Shown here: one piece after another, positions 53,817 through 63,466 of the stretch | Position numbering within the stretch: position 1 is the stretch's first letter | Layout of the letters: each line of letters starts with the position of its first letter | DNA from: Spirulina major PCC 6313 | Lineage (GTDB): Bacteria > Cyanobacteriota > Cyanobacteriia > Cyanobacteriales > Spirulinaceae | Direction: 5' to 3' | DNA: 64,000 nt | Assembly: GCF_001890765.1 (NCBI RefSeq) | Contig: NZ_KV878783.1 | Coordinates: 791,625 to 855,624 of the forward strand | The notes under the pieces: model-generated | Databases searched by the model: none | What the model saw: the letters and a program-made list of their open reading frames with translations, nothing else | What the model was told of the DNA's origin: nothing | Made by a program: the position numbers and the translations under genes

Positions 53817-54326
53817 GTGAAATCATTGAATGAGACCATGGGACGAGGAAGACGAAATAAGATATTTCTCAGCCAAGAGCAGAGAGAACGGCTAGAAAAG
53901 ATCAGCCGCAATGGACAGGCTCCGACCAAGAAAATCCTTCACGCCCAGATCTTGCTAATGAGTGATGAAGGAGAAGGAGCAACGAGAAAATGGACAGATG
54001 TGGAAATCAGTGAAGCGTTAAATCTGCACGTCAACACAGTAGGTCGCATCCGGAAACAATTTCTAGAACAAGGAGAAGCGTCAGCCTTAGAACGAAAGGC
54101 AAGAAGCAAGCCCCCCGTAGACCCGATCGTAGATGGAGAGACAGAAGTGCAAATCATCGCCCTGTATGCTTCAGACCCACCAGACGGGAGAGCGCATTGG
54201 AGTGTGAGGTTATTAACCCAAGAACTCAAACGGCGCACAATCGTGACTAAAATTTCGAGAGAAACAGTCAGACGAACGCTTCAAAAAACAAATTGTGTCT
54301 CTAGTGGACAGTCAAATGTTTATTGA
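53817..54326 (+). pseudogene. Truncated IS630-type transposase
   Basis: 169 residues with the helix-turn-helix half of an IS630/Tc1 transposase: LSQEQRERLEKISRNGQAP, then ISEALNLHVNTVGRIRKQFL and HWSVRLLTQELKRR. It ends soon after TVRRTLQKTN with an unrelated 9-residue tail, so the DDE catalytic domain is missing. The product would not transpose but could bind element ends. I could not fix its terminal repeats or target duplication. Confidence 0.8.
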
Positions 54327-54440: not shown

Positions 54441-57400
54441 CTACCAGGGGCTGCCGACTAAGGTGAAGCCACTCCAATAGAAAGGATGGGTTAAATCGAG
54501 GTCGTATTGGGCGAGGCCGGGCGGGAGGTCAAGATTGGCGATCGCACCGTCGCGGATGGTCGTTTGACCCCGGAGCAAATTGAGTTGGGCTTGGCGGAGG
54601 GCTTCGGCTTTAATTAGCGGCGTGGGGGCATTGAGTTGAGCATAGAATTGATCCATCAGTCCCAACGTGCCCAGATCCGACACTTGCCACAGACTCGCCA
54701 GGGCAGACTTGACCCCCGCCTGCACCGCCAACCCCGCAAACCCCAGTTCCACGGTTGGATCATCAAACGCAGTGTCACAGGCACTAAGCACCAGCAATTC
54801 TACCGGCGGCGCATTGTTCCAGCCCAGGGTTCGCAGGTCAGAAATGAGTAATCGTTCATCCCAGAGTTGGATATAGGCTTGATCTAGCTGATCGGGTTGA
54901 AAGGCGGCATGGGTGGCGAGGTGGATGACGTTAAAGGTGCGATCGCGGCTATAGGTGCGTAAATTTTCCAGGGTAAAGTCTTGGTTGAGAAAGGCTCGGC
55001 TAGTGGGGTTTTGGGTGATGCTTTGGAGTTCGAGGGGGACGCTGGGCAGGTCTTGCAACCGGTCAAACTCCGATGCACCCATGGCGAGGACGGTGGGATT
55101 TTGCACCGAGCGATAGGTGCGATCGGTGAGGCTGAGGCTGGGGACTTGGCCGAGGCTGTATTTTTCAACGAGGAACCGCTCACCATCGTAGAGCGCCGCG
55201 AGGGGAATTGTCCGCAGGGCTTCGCTCATGGAAAACACCAGGGTATCAACATCAAGGTCGGCTAGATACGGCTCCAGGGGGCGAATTAACCAATCGTAAA
55301 GCTGGCTGGCTGAGGTTTGATACCCATTTCCTAACCCCTGAATCCGACGGCGGAAGGTGGTGACGGTGCGGTTGAGGGTGGCGCGATCGGCTTCGGGAAT
55401 GATCTGACGGATGACTTTGCTATCGGGGGTGATTAAGATCAGTTCTATGGCATCGGGTAAGCTCAACGCATAGATGAAGCCGTAGGATGTGCCGGTTTGT
55501 TCCCGAATGTAGGTGAAGAGTTCGGCGAGGTCGGGGGTGTTGGTTTGGTTAGGTGTGCCTTGATTGTTCAAGAGTTGGGCAAAAACATCGGTGCGATCGC
55601 CCTCCTCGGCATCACTGCTACTGGTTTGAGGGGTCTGAGCGCCGGCGAGTTGTTGAAAGGCGGCGGTATAGTCCTGACTCATGAGCCGATCAATTTGGGA
55701 CAGGGTTGCGATGATTTTGGGATCACCCAGGGAGTTAACAGTATTGGTGCGGATTTGAATCGCGGGAGAATGGGCCCTCGGTTGCTCCACGTAGCGATCG
55801 GATGGGTTAAGGTCGTCCATCCCCCCCACAAAATCCTCGTCATTGTCGCAAATCACGGGACATTGGCGGCGAATTCGCAAATCCCCGAAGTCCAAATTCT
55901 GTTCGTAAATGCCCGTTTCCAGGGTGGTTAAGCCTGTGGTGATCCACCCGGATGTGCCGCTGCGATTACTGCGCACCGCTTCGCCGACGCGGAAGGGATT
56001 TAATCCCCCATGGAGAATATTGACCTGCCCACTGTTCCACGCTCCGGCAGCGGTTCGCCCGGCGGTGGAAATGCTGACCTCCACGGGAAAATCATTAATT
56101 TCACTGAACAGACTACGGGCGATCGCGCCATCGATTTGCATAAACCCCAAGGTATTGAGGGTGACATCTCCCCCACGTCCCACGCGGGCTTCGGTATTGA
56201 TTGCGCCGGTCTGAATCGTTTGAGCGGCCCGCAGGCTCACCGCGCCGGCATTGCCGCTGGTGGTGGCGGTGGTGGCGATCGCGCCGGTGGCGATGCGGCG
56301 GCCAGCGGTGAGGGTAATTGCCCCGCCGCCGGTGGCGCTGCTCGTATCTAGGGAGCCGGTGGTAATCCGATTGGCTGCGGTGAGGGCGATCGCACCCATT
56401 GCTCCGTCTGGAGTTGCCACGGTTTTTAAATCCCCCGTGCGAATTTGATCCCCCGCCGTCAAGGTCACATTGCCTGCTGTTAAGGTTAAGCCGGTGATGT
56501 CGATCGTGGTGGCGGCGGTTAAGGTCAGGGCCTCGTTAGTCTGCACATCCCCCGTTAACAAAATCCGCCCCGTTCCCCCCAAAGACACCCGATTGCGCCC
56601 ATAGAGGTCAAGGTCTAAATTGCCATCATGATTGGCGATCGTCACTGTGCCGGAATCACTATAAATCCCGCCCCCCGATCCCGTGGCTTGATTATTGCGG
56701 AGCCGCACCTGATCGAGGGTTAACGCCCCCGTCCCGGTATGGTTAATCCCCGCCCCATTGCCCGCCACCCGGCCATTTTGAATCCGGATATTTTGGAGCG
56801 TTGCGGTATCGGCGGCAATATTAAATACACGGGTGCGATTCTGACCGCTCACCGTCGCCCCATTGCCGTCAATCGTCAGGTTATCCGTGGCCCAAGCGAT
56901 TTCACTGTTTAACTGCACTGAACGAGAGGCATCGGCAAAAGTGACCGTATCCCCAGCGGCAGCGGCGGCGATTTGCGATCGCAACGTTCCCACCCCCGCA
57001 TCGTCATAGTTCGTCACGGTCAGGGTGGCTAATTTCCCCGACCATTGCTCTAGGGTGGTCACCGGAAAGGGATTGTGCGCCTCAATGGCCCCCGTGCTGC
57101 GTTCTAATCCCCAATCCGCGCCATAGTTGGCGCTGCCGGTAGCATTGAGCGATGCGGCTACATCTGCTCCCGTGAAATCGGCCAAACTGGTCATCAGCGC
57201 ATCCCCCGTCGCCCCCAAGGCCGTAAAACAGCTATACAACAGCAGATCTGCCCCCGCCGTCAGAGAATCCGACCAGGTTTGCAACTGGGTTTGATAGTCC
57301 TGCACCGTCTCGCTCGTAATCCACTGATTCCCAAACCAAAAATTCCCCGCATTCCCCTCCGCCACGATCGCCACCGATGCCAAGGGGCCCACGGCATCAC

Positions 57401-58451
57401 TCAATTCGGCTAACTGTGTCGTTGCGATCGCCAGCCCGTCTTTATCCCGTTTCACCATCTGCGTCACCGTCCCCGCCGCCCCTCCAAACAGCAGCGCCTC
57501 CGCCTGATCCGCCCGCTGATCAATAAACACCGCCTGATTCGGATTCAGCCCCCCCTCGCTGAACCGCGCCACCCGCACATCACCCCCGACCATTGCCGGA
57601 GTCGTCACCGTCACCCGATCCGCCGCCCACAGATCCACCCGATCCCCCGTCACCTCCCCTTCTAAATGCACCGAACCCGTCACCACCGCCGCCTCAGTGG
57701 TCACCGCGCCCCCCGTCAACAACGCCGGTAAATCCGTCGGTGCAATCCCCGCTGCGATCGCCTCCAGCGGCACTTCCACACTCAACAGCGATCCCTTCGG
57801 AGTCACCTTCACCCACCGTTCCCCCGGAACCGCCGCCAACGTCACGCCATCACCCTGAATCGTCCCCGTATTGATAATCGTGCCACCGAGGAGATGCACC
57901 CCCCGCCCGGCGGTCAACGTCCCCGCATTAATAATGGCCCCCGGCGTTTCACTCAAAAACGCAAACTGATGCGGCTCCCCCACCAACGTTGCGTAGTCAT
58001 TCGCCCCCGACGCATCCCACCAGCCCCCCTCAAAACCAATGCGATCGGCCGTCGTCGCCCAGAAATCCCCCCCCACATCCAGCCGCGCCCCCGTCCCAAA
58101 CACAATCCCCGCCGGATTGATCAGGTATAGGTTAGAGTCCGCGCCACTCACCTGCAACAGCCCATGAATCACCGACGGATCGCCCCCCGTCACCCGCCCC
58201 AGAATATTCGTCACCGTCGAATTACTCAAAAAACTGGCGATTTCACCCGAATTTAACCCCAATTTCGCAAAACTATGGAACAGATTCGCCCCTGCTTGAG
58301 TTCCCCCCTCAATGGTGTAGGTTATGCCGTTGTAGTCAATCACTGTGCCCGTGCCATCGGCGGCGGGGATGATGGATTGGGCCACTGCCGGCATTGCACC
58401 GAAAAGGCTACCCACAGTGAGAAATAGAGGCAGAGCAAGGGGTTTAGACAT
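54441..58451 (-). CDS. Secreted TPS-DUF4347-beta-helix-CHAT protein
   Basis: 1336 residues. Signal peptide (1-24); TPS/haemagglutinin secretion domain (about 25-290, LYLINPAGIVFGTGARLDVG); DUF4347-like segment (about 310-475, with LLLYSCFTALG and ADWGLERSTGAIEAHNPFPV); right-handed beta-helix region with Thr/Gly-rich repeats (about 480-830); and C-terminal CHAT caspase-like protease domain (about 1000-1336) with His1181 in HLATHAAF and Cys1225 in LSACDTAF, both intact. The TPS domain predicts export through a TpsB outer-membrane pore; none is encoded nearby. Probably a surface or released protease. Its target is unknown. Confidence 0.9.
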   Translation of the reverse strand: MSKPLALPLFLTVGSLFGAMPAVAQSIIPAADGTGTVIDYNGITYTIEGGTQAGANLFHSFAKLGLNSGEIASFLSNSTVTNILGRVTGGDPSVIHGLLQVSGADSNLYLINPAGIVFGTGARLDVGGDFWATTADRIGFEGGWWDASGANDYATLVGEPHQFAFLSETPGAIINAGTLTAGRGVHLLGGTIINTGTIQGDGVTLAAVPGERWVKVTPKGSLLSVEVPLEAIAAGIAPTDLPALLTGGAVTTEAAVVTGSVHLEGEVTGDRVDLWAADRVTVTTPAMVGGDVRVARFSEGGLNPNQAVFIDQRADQAEALLFGGAAGTVTQMVKRDKDGLAIATTQLAELSDAVGPLASVAIVAEGNAGNFWFGNQWITSETVQDYQTQLQTWSDSLTAGADLLLYSCFTALGATGDALMTSLADFTGADVAASLNATGSANYGADWGLERSTGAIEAHNPFPVTTLEQWSGKLATLTVTNYDDAGVGTLRSQIAAAAAGDTVTFADASRSVQLNSEIAWATDNLTIDGNGATVSGQNRTRVFNIAADTATLQNIRIQNGRVAGNGAGINHTGTGALTLDQVRLRNNQATGSGGGIYSDSGTVTIANHDGNLDLDLYGRNRVSLGGTGRILLTGDVQTNEALTLTAATTIDITGLTLTAGNVTLTAGDQIRTGDLKTVATPDGAMGAIALTAANRITTGSLDTSSATGGGAITLTAGRRIATGAIATTATTSGNAGAVSLRAAQTIQTGAINTEARVGRGGDVTLNTLGFMQIDGAIARSLFSEINDFPVEVSISTAGRTAAGAWNSGQVNILHGGLNPFRVGEAVRSNRSGTSGWITTGLTTLETGIYEQNLDFGDLRIRRQCPVICDNDEDFVGGMDDLNPSDRYVEQPRAHSPAIQIRTNTVNSLGDPKIIATLSQIDRLMSQDYTAAFQQLAGAQTPQTSSSDAEEGDRTDVFAQLLNNQGTPNQTNTPDLAELFTYIREQTGTSYGFIYALSLPDAIELILITPDSKVIRQIIPEADRATLNRTVTTFRRRIQGLGNGYQTSASQLYDWLIRPLEPYLADLDVDTLVFSMSEALRTIPLAALYDGERFLVEKYSLGQVPSLSLTDRTYRSVQNPTVLAMGASEFDRLQDLPSVPLELQSITQNPTSRAFLNQDFTLENLRTYSRDRTFNVIHLATHAAFQPDQLDQAYIQLWDERLLISDLRTLGWNNAPPVELLVLSACDTAFDDPTVELGFAGLAVQAGVKSALASLWQVSDLGTLGLMDQFYAQLNAPTPLIKAEALRQAQLNLLRGQTTIRDGAIANLDLPPGLAQYDLDLTHPFYWSGFTLVGSPW

Positions 58452-61679: not shown

Positions 61680-63251
61680 TTATGGGGTGGGGGGTTGGCG
61701 GGTTCCGGTTTTGACATCGACGAAACGACTGCGAGCCGTGGTGCGGAGGTGTTCCACGTCTTCGCGGCGAGAGACGGAGAGGGGGACGGTGGATTCAATT
61801 TCGAGGATGAGGAGATCGGTGTCGAGGGCTTGTTTGAGGTAGAGGGCGCGGTAGAGGGCTGAGACGATCGCTTGTTCAATTTCGGCCCCACTGAAGCCGT
61901 GGGTGGCTTGGATCAGGCGGGGGAGATCGAAGGTTTCGAGGGGTTGATGGTGCGATCGCAGGTGAATCGTCAGGATCGCCGCCCGCTCCTGCTCGTCTGG
62001 TAGATCCACAAAAAAGATCTCATCAAATCGCCCCTTGCGCAGCAATTCCGGCGGCAGTTGGGTTAAATCATTGGCCGTCGCCACCACAAACACCTCTTGA
62101 GACTTTTCCTGTAACCAGGTGAGGAAGGCCCCAAACAGCCGCCGACTCAGGCCCCCATCACTGCCACCGCTGTCGGTGCTGCCCAAACTTTTTTCAATCT
62201 CATCAATCCACAACACCGTCGGCGCGATCGATTCGGCGAGGGTGACGGCGCGGCGAAAATTGCGATCGGATTCGCCGACATATTTATCGTAGAGCCGCCC
62301 CATGTCCAGCTTGATCAAGGGTAAACGCCATTCGCGGGCGATGGTTTTGGCGGCGAGGGACTTACCGCAGCCCTGTACCCCGACGATCAAGATGCCTTTG
62401 GGGGGTGGGAGTTTGAGGTCGCGGGCTTCGCTGGAAAAGCCGACGCGGGCGCGTTTGAGCCATTGTTTCAACCCGACGAAGCCGCCGAGGTTGGCTTGGT
62501 TTTCTGAGGCGGGGAAATATTCGAGCAGGCCGTCGGCTTGGATGACTTGGGCTTTGCGGTGGAGGATGCGGTTAATGTCCTCGGCGGTGAGTTTGCCGTC
62601 TTCGAGGGCGGCGTAGGCCACCACTTGGCGGGCTTGGATTAGGGTCATGCCGCTGAGGGCGCGGACGAGTTCTTTGAGTTCGTGGTCTTGGAGTTCGACT
62701 TTGACTTGTTGCTTGCGTTGGTTGAGCGATCGCACCACCTCGGACACCACTTTATACAGTTCATCCCGCCCCGGCAGTTTCAAATCATAAAACACCGTCT
62801 CATGGGCGATCGCTGTCGGTAATTCCAACGCTGTCCCCGTCAACACCAATGCGCCGCGATTTTTCCGCAACAATCGCGCCAAATTCCGAATCTGTCGCGC
62901 CACCTCATCATCTTTTAAATACCCCCCAAAATCCTTGAGCAGATACACCGCTTTCCGGTTCAATGTTTCGAGATGACAGAGCATATCCAGGGGTTTTTGG
63001 GTGTTTTCATACACCGTCATCGGATTGCCACTGTCCGGGGTGCATTCATTCAGTTGGGGCGCGAACTTACTGCCGGGGGACAGATACAAGCCCCGATTCA
63101 CCGTCCATTCAAAGAGGGGAATATGGAGTTCTCGCGTCATTCCTTTGAGGACATTTTCTACCCGTTCTTCTTCCACGGTTTCCATGGCGATGATCGGATG
63201 GAAAGATTGGACGAGCAGTTTAAGATCGTAAATACTGGCGGCTAAATTCAT
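61680..63251 (-). CDS. ycf46: Ycf46 AAA+ ATPase
   Basis: 523 residues. An N-terminal helical domain ([20 protein letters not shown]) precedes an AAA+ module with Walker [14 protein letters not shown], Walker [13 protein letters not shown], sensor 1 VVATAND and the arginine-finger region [15 protein letters not shown]. Ycf46 is found in plastids of algae and in cyanobacteria and is linked to photosynthesis and inorganic-carbon use, but its substrate is not known. ATG 63251 chosen; it lies inside a 19-bp direct repeat created by the neighbouring MITE. Confidence 0.93.
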
Positions 63252-63266
63252 GGTGTGGTTATGGGT
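63248..63266. repeat. 19-bp direct repeat flanking MITE copy C, left
   Basis: TCATGGTGTGGTTATGGGT; the same 19 bases recur at 63467-63485. On the minus strand it carries the ycf46 start codon. Confidence 0.9.
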
Positions 63267-63466
63267 ATAGGACAAAAATCAGGCTTGGTCTAAAACCCTG
63301 ATGATTTCGTAGGTTGGGGAGAACAATAGCAAAACCTAACTCCCTAAAAATCCATAGTCTGTAGTGCGGGCATCTTACCCGCTGGGATCAGACAAAATAG
63401 GGAGCAAGATGCTCCCACTCCATCAAAATCAAGATTTTGCCGTACATTTCAACGTTTGTCCTGTAC
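63267..63466 (-). mobile_element. MITE-like element, copy C (200 bp)
   Basis: Strongly similar to copy A (31873-32087) in reverse orientation, with the same two internal hairpins (GGGAGCAAGATGCTCCC; GCGGGTAAGATGCCCGC), and ends ATAGGACAAA / TTTGTCCTGTAC. Sits between the stop of the upstream membrane-protein gene and the ycf46 start, flanked by 19-bp direct repeats. Confidence 0.8.

What the first reader, a model, noticed from the sequence alone, without database searches (positions are those of the whole stretch)
54441..58451. Exported caspase-like (CHAT) protease fused to TPS and DUF4347 modules
Intact His1181/Cys1225 dyad in the CHAT domain, an N-terminal two-partner-secretion domain and a DUF4347-like segment in one chain. 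CHAT proteases are usually cytosolic and in bacteria some act in defence or programmed death; here the protease should leave the cell. No TpsB pore is beside it, so the export partner is elsewhere. A truncated transposase adjoins its 3' side and a chemoreceptor-like gene is divergent.
Basis: partly seen in the sequence, partly recalled or inferred. Interest (0 to 1): 0.6.

Follow-up and report, generated by a model that had tools for sequence, protein, structure and literature searches.

The report
Exported protease tied to two-partner secretion
This cyanobacterial gene encodes a large exported surface-type protein that ends in an apparently intact caspase-like (CHAT) protease and holds a second, apparently disabled caspase-like domain inside, and relatives suggest that such proteases are a recurring part of one cyanobacterial protein-export route.

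Summary
Window 54441-58451(-) encodes 1336 aa: signal peptide, TPS secretion domain, DUF4347, beta-helix-like passenger, C-terminal CHAT protease. It is one of ten TPS...CHAT genes in a Spirulina-like genome. All 32 TPS...CHAT ORFs examined (18 of 29 genomes) keep the His/Cys dyad; in 13 of 32 the catalytic Cys is the mature chain's only Cys.

TPS-fused copies lack the catalytic His (0 of 19) that others keep (30 of 33). (2) CHAT is linked to two-partner secretion: TpsA-TpsB-CHAT operons, CHAT within 200 bp of 8 of 27 TpsB loci (0.1 expected), one TPS-TpsB-CHAT single ORF. This gene itself has no TpsB within 279 kb. (3) CHAT should leave the cytoplasm; crossing the outer membrane is unproven.

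Best reading: a TpsA exoprotein with a built-in envelope protease, perhaps for its own maturation or release. Dyad geometry (model failed), activity, location and substrate are untested.

The parts
54441..58451 (-). TPS-DUF4347-CHAT exoprotein gene (1336 aa)
   Evidence: ORF and Pfam architecture; one of ten TPS...CHAT ORFs in the genome
58377..58451 (-). signal peptide, residues 1-25 (ending PAVAQ)
   Evidence: read by eye; paralogues have similar starts; no signal-peptide predictor was run
57840..58349 (-). TPS secretion domain, residues 35-204, with the NPAG motif at 112-115
   Evidence: PF05860 109.9 bits; TIGR01901 70.2 bits
57030..57530 (-). DUF4347, residues 308-474: caspase-fold domain without the catalytic His
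   Evidence: PF14252 133.9 bits; AF2 model pLDDT 80, pTM 0.82; fold matches
57357..57359 (-). codon of E365, at the place of the His of canonical DUF4347
   Evidence: column table; alignment A6
57228..57230 (-). codon of C408, the retained DUF4347 cysteine
55872..56993 (-). beta-helix-like passenger, residues about 487-860 (limits approximate)
   Evidence: weak NosD-like and POMP-repeat matches; PF13229 Beta_helix over cut-off after DUF4347 in paralogue L061 and in L175
55848..55862 (-). cysteine pair C864/C868 between passenger and CHAT
   Evidence: sequence; such a pair in 4 of 10 own TPS...CHAT proteins and in L091 and L102 of 14 others printed
54450..55316 (-). CHAT protease domain, residues 1046-1334
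   Evidence: PF12770 214.8 bits
54909..54911 (-). codon of predicted catalytic H1181
   Evidence: invariant 10 of 10, 32 of 32; faces a TPR-CHAT His in the weak profile match to 7zoq
54777..54779 (-). codon of predicted catalytic C1225
   Evidence: invariant 10 of 10, 32 of 32; faces a TPR-CHAT Cys
53817..54326 (+). IS630-type transposase first-half remnant; 3' neighbour, not part of the system
   Evidence: NF033545 57.9 bits, below its cut-off of 100; 65% copy elsewhere in the genome
58892..60562 (+). divergent CHASE3-MCP chemoreceptor-like gene; not taken as part of the system (its conservation beside paralogues was not tested)

Best explanation
The gene encodes a TpsA-type exoprotein with a built-in protease. 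It is exported by Sec through its signal peptide, handed by its TPS domain to an unlinked TpsB pore, and displays a beta-helix passenger; its C-terminal CHAT domain is a His/Cys caspase-like protease that works in the cell envelope, most likely as a maturation or release protease of its own chain or of fellow TpsA proteins. The internal DUF4347 is a second caspase-fold domain that lost its catalytic His and probably serves as a non-catalytic scaffold, binding or regulatory part. Shown here: architecture, dyad conservation, DUF4347 fold (by model) and His loss, genomic linkage of CHAT to TPS/TpsB. Inferred: export, envelope location, proteolytic activity. Guessed: the substrate (own chain or fellow TpsA).
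For: Domains over cut-off. Dyad kept in 32 of 32 TPS...CHAT ORFs (18 of 29 genomes, from the loci I held), and the catalytic Cys is the sole Cys of the mature chain in 13 of 32. The CHAT profile places H1181/C1225 on a His and a Cys of TPR-CHAT 7zoq (E 0.2, weak overall); the published TPR-CHAT dyad is H585/C627 and changing C627 to Ala or Ser abolished activity (PMC9729208, passages). TPS...CHAT ORFs lie directly beside TpsB in G004 (L175), G017 (L176), G019 (L177) and G012 (L179). A CHAT ORF lies within 200 bp of 8 of 27 TpsB loci in seven contiguous genomes against 0.1 expected. Fused TPS-TpsB ORFs are followed by CHAT in L171, L181, L183, L218, L219, L220, L227, L228, and all three are in one 2363-codon ORF in L182. 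Named example as annotated: S-layer family protein, ShlB, CHAT in a row on a Nostoc sp. UHCC 0302 plasmid.
Against: No activity, localisation or substrate data. The AF2 model of this CHAT failed (pLDDT 40), so the dyad geometry is not shown. None of the ten TPS...CHAT genes of this genome is within about 30 kb of a TpsB. 19 of the 27 TpsB loci have no CHAT ORF within 200 bp (count). CHAT domains occur in many proteins here without TPS (36 matches, 35 over cut-off, against ten TPS...CHAT ORFs). In G028 the CHAT ORF overlapping a TPS ORF has lost the dyad (Q/S in L111).
Confidence: 0.5

Rival explanations
1. Secreted effector: the CHAT domain is delivered outside, or to neighbouring cells or grazers, and cleaves foreign proteins, as LepA (a TpsA protease) does or as CdiA toxins act.
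For: TPS is an outer-membrane export route; LepA is a TpsA protease (PMC5422565, passages); ten TPS...CHAT genes of 1266 to 1790 aa with different middle parts in one genome.
Against: In operons (L067, L068) and behind the barrel (L182) CHAT should be periplasmic, not secreted. Small immunity genes were not searched for (one search lists ORFs of 120 aa or more only), so this rival is weakly tested.
Confidence: 0.2
2. Envelope stress or phage-sensing protease: the surface passenger senses and CHAT triggers a cell-death or defence response.
For: CHAT effectors exist in defence (Craspase, PMC9729208; DGR-linked systems, PMC10907252); partial PADLOC match to BovA and an IetA-like AAA ATPase at 61680-63275.
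Against: Export-type chain; the BovA match is 16.6 bits over 85 residues of the CHAT core; repeated linkage to TPS genes instead.
Confidence: 0.12
3. Structural relic: CHAT and DUF4347 are folded decoration of an adhesin without catalysis.
For: DUF4347 lacks its His in all 19 TPS-fused copies examined; one CHAT ORF in G028 lost its dyad.
Against: 32 of 32 TPS...CHAT ORFs keep both residues, 13 of 32 with the catalytic Cys as the only Cys.
Confidence: 0.1
4. No special link: CHAT proteins are abundant in cyanobacteria and some lie near TPS genes by chance or by shared mobility.
For: 36, 34, 23 and 38 CHAT matches in four of the seven genomes counted; CHAT and TPS genes also lie side by side on plasmids.
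Against: 8 of 27 within 200 bp against 0.1 expected; fusions in single ORFs; the same gene order in several families.
Confidence: 0.08

Closest known systems
Two-partner secretion exoproteins (TpsA; FHA, HMW1, HxuA)
   Same: Signal peptide, N-terminal TPS domain with NPXG motif, beta-helix-like passenger, no own barrel; sequence match to heme/hemopexin-binding protein 4i84 (E 7.9e-6)
   Different: C-terminal CHAT protease and internal DUF4347; TpsB not in an operon with this gene
LepA, a TpsA protease of P. aeruginosa (PMC5422565, passages)
   Same: A protease exported by TPS
   Different: To my recollection a trypsin-like serine protease, not a caspase-fold enzyme; sequences not compared
SphB1 and LapG as TpsA maturation/release proteases (PMC5422565, passages)
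   Same: Process or release TpsA adhesins in the envelope
   Different: [quoted passage not shown] here the protease is in cis or, in relatives, in the operon. No sequence relation tested
TPR-CHAT of Craspase
   Same: CHAT domain with His and Cys in aligned positions
   Different: RNA-triggered partner of a CRISPR effector with TPRs; no TPS domain
HetF of Anabaena (PMC8406250, passages)
   Same: Cyanobacterial CHAT putative protease whose active site is needed for function
   Different: Acts in division and heterocyst development; not compared by sequence here
Tce1 (PA0256), DUF4347 type VI effector (PMC13323088, passages and outline)
   Same: Same family and fold as the internal domain (9qpe_G, Z 13.6; canonical DUF4347 profile E 0.0015)
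   Different: Tce1 keeps H186 and C240; here Glu replaces His

Membership tests
TpsA exoprotein (two-partner secretion, type Vb) | N-terminal TPS domain behind a signal peptide | tested here: met
   PF05860 109.9 bits, TIGR01901 70.2 bits; signal peptide by eye only
TpsA exoprotein (two-partner secretion, type Vb) | TpsB partner gene | tested here: inconclusive
   None linked (nearest 279 kb); 7 TpsB over cut-off in the genome; relatives L175, L176, L177, L179 are beside TpsB
TpsA exoprotein (two-partner secretion, type Vb) | Translocation to the cell surface | not testable with these tools
   needs an experiment
CHAT protease (PF12770) | CHAT domain | tested here: met
   214.8 bits against a cut-off of 24
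CHAT protease (PF12770) | His/Cys dyad residues | tested here: met
   H1181/C1225 in 10 of 10 and 32 of 32
CHAT protease (PF12770) | Dyad geometry in the fold | tested here: inconclusive
   AF2 model pLDDT 40
CHAT protease (PF12770) | Proteolytic activity | not testable with these tools
   needs an experiment
DUF4347 / caspase-fold cysteine protease of the Tce1 type | Fold | tested here: met
   Model pLDDT 80; Z 13.6 to Tce1, 8.9 to SAVED-CHAT
DUF4347 / caspase-fold cysteine protease of the Tce1 type | Catalytic His and Cys | tested here: not met
   E365 in place of His, C408 kept; filed as a fold relative, not as an active protease
Contact-dependent inhibition (CdiA) | Polymorphic C-terminal toxin | tested here: inconclusive
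   CHAT is the C-terminus of ten ORFs, but these were chosen for holding CHAT
Contact-dependent inhibition (CdiA) | Adjacent immunity gene | not tested
   paralogue regions were listed only for ORFs of 120 aa or more
Known anti-phage defence protein | Match to a defence model and defence neighbours | tested here: inconclusive
   Only match BovA, 16.6 bits over 85 residues; one of six neighbours tested, the AAA ATPase at 61680-63275, matches IetA with 79 bits

The most novel reading that the evidence does not exclude
Cyanobacterial two-partner secretion has a third, proteolytic partner: a CHAT protease, found in two distinct CHAT lineages (one fused to the end of TpsA; one as a TPR-CHAT third gene or fused behind TpsB), that matures, releases or gates the exoprotein; and in part of the fused family a His-less caspase-fold DUF4347 acts as a built-in pseudoprotease regulator or substrate-docking part for the CHAT protease on the same chain.
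Probability: 0.4. Interest if true: 0.75.

Novelty: new variant of a known kind. Interest (0 to 1): 0.57.

Why it matters
[quoted passage not shown] Here a protease-type domain sits in the TpsA chain, and in relatives in the operon or in the same chain as the pore. If CHAT processes TpsA, this would move a caspase-like family often discussed for cell death or defence into the envelope, might help explain why some cyanobacteria hold more than 30 CHAT domains, and gives a testable system. The chain also pairs a probably inactive with an apparently intact caspase-fold domain, worth testing for pseudoenzyme regulation. The library held no paper with both 'CHAT domain' and 'two-partner secretion'; wider searches listed none that joins them (lists of 5, 23 and 88 were capped).

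Tried and rejected
Structure of the CHAT region (residues 975-1336) with four sequences: pLDDT 40, not used. PDB sequence search with the mainly TPS-type DUF4347 profile A3: nothing relevant; the canonical profile A4 then found 9qpe_G at E 0.0015. hhalign of DUF4347 against CHAT: local P 7.9e-4, probability 25 with all 34 sequences, P 0.012, probability 4 with 25 canonical ones, His and Cys facing each other; suggestive only. Foldseek rows for the DUF4347 model also hold Rossmann dehydrogenases at E about 1e-3, and unrelated folds appear at Z about 6, so the caspase-fold call rests on Tce1 and SAVED-CHAT. Viral contigs: A2 and A3 gave no relatives; A4 gave three, A5 two; the three stretches of a DNA pattern held no DUF4347 by my profile. 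Genome contigs: one relative, L087. A conserved HMW1-like cysteine anchor: the pair occurs in 4 of 10 own proteins and 2 of 14 others, dropped. TPS-CHAT outside cyanobacteria: the one Azospirillum hit opened is Sel1/TPR-CHAT without TPS; not tested further. The open_frame_aa column disagreed with frames that I computed (2364 against 882 for G196), so I used my own frames. In L177 the TPS domain is seen by my profile and by eye but not listed by Pfam. I first read the tree as two independent couplings of CHAT to TPS; it holds too few CHATs unrelated to TPS to exclude one coupling with later rearrangement, so I claim two lineages only.
Full report
WHAT IS THERE. Window 54441-58451(-) is an intact ORF of 1336 aa. 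Pfam finds TPS (35-204), DUF4347 (308-474) and CHAT (1046-1334), all well over cut-off; NCBIfam adds the NPXG secretion domain, and the PDB search matches the N-terminus to a heme/hemopexin-binding TpsA-type protein, 4i84. The N-terminus reads as a signal peptide ending in PAVAQ (by eye). The 3' neighbour is an IS630-type half transposase; the 5' neighbour is a divergent CHASE3-MCP gene.

GENOME CONTEXT. The genome (5.05 Mb, two contigs) is a cyanobacterium close to Spirulina: the one named relative found is from Spirulina sp. SIO3F2, 56% identical in its best segment. It has 36 CHAT matches, 35 over cut-off, 20 TPS, 9 DUF4347, and 7 TpsB over cut-off plus one weak. Ten ORFs join TPS and CHAT; five of the ten, this one included, also hold DUF4347. 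None of the ten is within about 30 kb of a TpsB. The gene is one of a paralogous family whose pores must be shared or unlinked.

SELECTION ON THE DYAD. Both residues are invariant in the ten. I took every CHAT ORF above a length and score floor in the loci of the window, (duplicates removed): 32 with TPS in the same ORF, all 32 His plus Cys; 38 without a visible TPS (several cut by the locus end), 37 His plus Cys and one Q/S, L111. The 32 come from 18 of the 29 genomes of the relatives search, a lower bound because only held loci were examined. Mature TPS...CHAT chains are very poor in Cys (1.5 per 1000 residues), and in 13 of 32 the only Cys is the catalytic one. This is hard to reconcile with a relic. 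The CHAT profile aligns this dyad with a His and a Cys of TPR-CHAT 7zoq, though the overall E-value is only 0.2; in that family Cys627 to Ala or Ser abolishes activity (PMC9729208, passages).

DUF4347 IS A SECOND CASPASE-FOLD DOMAIN. A model of residues 290-490 from five sequences has pLDDT 80 and pTM 0.82. Its best PDB match is 9qpe_G, the DUF4347 effector Tce1 of P. aeruginosa (Foldseek E 2.5e-6; Z 13.6), followed by SAVED-CHAT (Z 8.9) and then C11, TPR-CHAT, C80 and legumain chains at Z about 6 to 7, a level at which unrelated folds also appear. The authors of the Tce1 structure propose His186/Cys240 as its dyad (PMC13323088, passages); the canonical DUF4347 profile aligns exactly these two residues with the His and Cys invariant in its eight members. 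In 52 distinct DUF4347 copies, those in an ORF with TPS have His in 0 of 19 (18 Glu, 1 Asp) and Cys in 18 of 19; those without a visible TPS have His in 30 of 33 (exceptions Phe, Asn, and one Glu in L101, whose ORF is cut by the locus end) and Cys in 33 of 33. Of these 33, 28 are the best-scoring copy of a genome, a bias towards canonical sequences. The TPS-fused copies share a changed motif (EGN in 16 of 19; YSC-x-TALG in 16 of 19, my count), which suggests a new role more than decay.

CHAT AND TWO-PARTNER SECRETION. In this genome L067 holds a tight TpsA-TpsB-TPR-CHAT operon, and L068 TpsB followed by TPR-CHAT. I then took the TpsB loci of six contiguous relatives (20 regions; three weak partial matches in G011 and G028 not fetched, and the weak own one not counted): of 27 loci in seven genomes, 8 have a CHAT ORF within 200 bp (L067, L068, L157, L158, L164, L165, L167, L171), 19 do not, and 13 have a TPS ORF within about 1.5 kb or fused (my counts; for L167 the TPS part is seen in the longer L177). 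From the CHAT densities 0.1 such neighbours are expected, P about 1e-13; this treats loci as independent, which related genomes are not. Regions chosen because they looked informative, hence no count: TPS...CHAT directly beside TpsB in L175, L176, L177, L179; TPS-TpsB fused ORFs with CHAT next in L181, L183; one ORF of 2363 codons with TPS, TpsB, TPR and CHAT in L182 (a draft contig, so an assembly error is possible). Other regions of the same call (L184, L185, L186) had no CHAT near TpsB. A search with the L182 protein over 195 genomes of the order led me to 13 more regions, all with CHAT next to TPS or TpsB genes, but selected by that very query. Annotated plasmids show the same: S-layer family protein, ShlB, CHAT and FHA N-terminal protein in Nostoc sp. 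UHCC 0302; CHAT, one gene between, FHA N-terminal protein and BamA/TamA-family protein in Gloeothece citriformis PCC 7424.

TWO LINEAGES. In a tree of 70 CHAT domains, 31 of the 32 TPS...CHAT rows sit with 14 others in one clade (100/100); most TPR-CHAT proteins beside TpsB, and the triple fusion L182, lie outside it. Ten of the 14 are cut by the locus end before the place of a TPS domain, and L099 follows a TPS-DUF4347 ORF in another frame. So TPS-linked CHATs fall into two kinds. The tree holds few CHATs unrelated to TPS, so it cannot say whether the link arose twice or once with later rearrangement.

WHERE AND HOW IT ACTS. Shown by sequence: domains, dyad residues, linkage. Inferred: export by Sec and a TpsB. 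In L067 and L068 TPR-CHAT has a signal-like N-terminus but no TPS domain, and in L182 it follows the barrel, so both should be periplasmic (Omp85 topology, recalled). In TPS...CHAT the protease is C-terminal and crosses the outer membrane last, if at all; CdrA keeps a periplasmic C-terminal tail that the protease LapG cuts (PMC5422565, passage), and FhaB has a C-terminal prodomain whose degradation is regulated (PMC8263021, search listing). The most economical reading is a dedicated envelope protease for TpsA maturation or release. The review says such protease genes appear not to be in TPS operons, so this would be a variant. I put about 0.5 on the envelope-protease reading with maturation as the leading task; delivery to other cells is the main rival.

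NOVELTY. Each domain is known and plasmid records label related genes as CHAT domain-containing proteins. What I did not find in print is the coupling: one search found 0 papers with both 'CHAT domain' and 'two-partner secretion'; one search listed all 11 of its papers, none with 'CHAT domain-containing'; searches listed none that joins them, though 5 (20 of 33), (20 of 22; 15 of 135) were capped lists. Papers of most subscription journals are not held. Four papers hold 'DUF4347'; one names PA0256, later called Tce1, as a DUF4347 protein (PMC8262886, passage). The Tce1 paper compares it with TcdB-type cysteine proteases and does not use the words caspase or DUF4347 in its main text. I saw passages only of PMC9729208, PMC9895726, PMC12691664, PMC10907252, PMC8262886, PMC4104836, PMC5422565 and PMC8406250, and passages plus outline of PMC13323088.

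Noticed in passing
   Followed up: partly
L171, L181, L183, L218, L219, L220, L227, L228: TpsA and TpsB fused in one ORF (1450 to 1805 codons), each followed by a CHAT ORF.
   Followed up: partly
L077:3941-6803, 1.3 kb beyond the window's right end: A CHAT ORF that seems to lack its N-terminal part, with two transposase-like ORFs (155 and 208 aa) just upstream; possibly broken by insertion.
   Followed up: no
L069:8083-15493 and L075:5861-7378: TPS-DUF4347 ORFs without CHAT (977, 570 and 506 codons), with transposase-like ORFs nearby by eye. The family seems to gain and lose members.
   Followed up: no
phylum sample: DUF4347 in 43 of 146 genomes. Outside TPS proteins it lies near the start of long ORFs and keeps the His/Cys pair in 30 of 33 copies; it may be an active protease domain of giant exported proteins.
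   Followed up: partly
window 61680-63275 (-): AAA ATPase with PADLOC IetA matches (79 bits); perhaps the common Ycf46-like ATPase (recalled); IetS was not looked for.
   Followed up: no
L059:5559-13511: Two TPS-CHAT genes in tandem; also tandem in L179, and two incomplete neighbours in the Spirulina sp. SIO3F2 contig L087.
   Followed up: no
L233:2399-6800 (Kovacikia minuta plasmid pA): TPS and CHAT in two overlapping ORFs of different frames; a broken or mis-sequenced relative.
   Followed up: no
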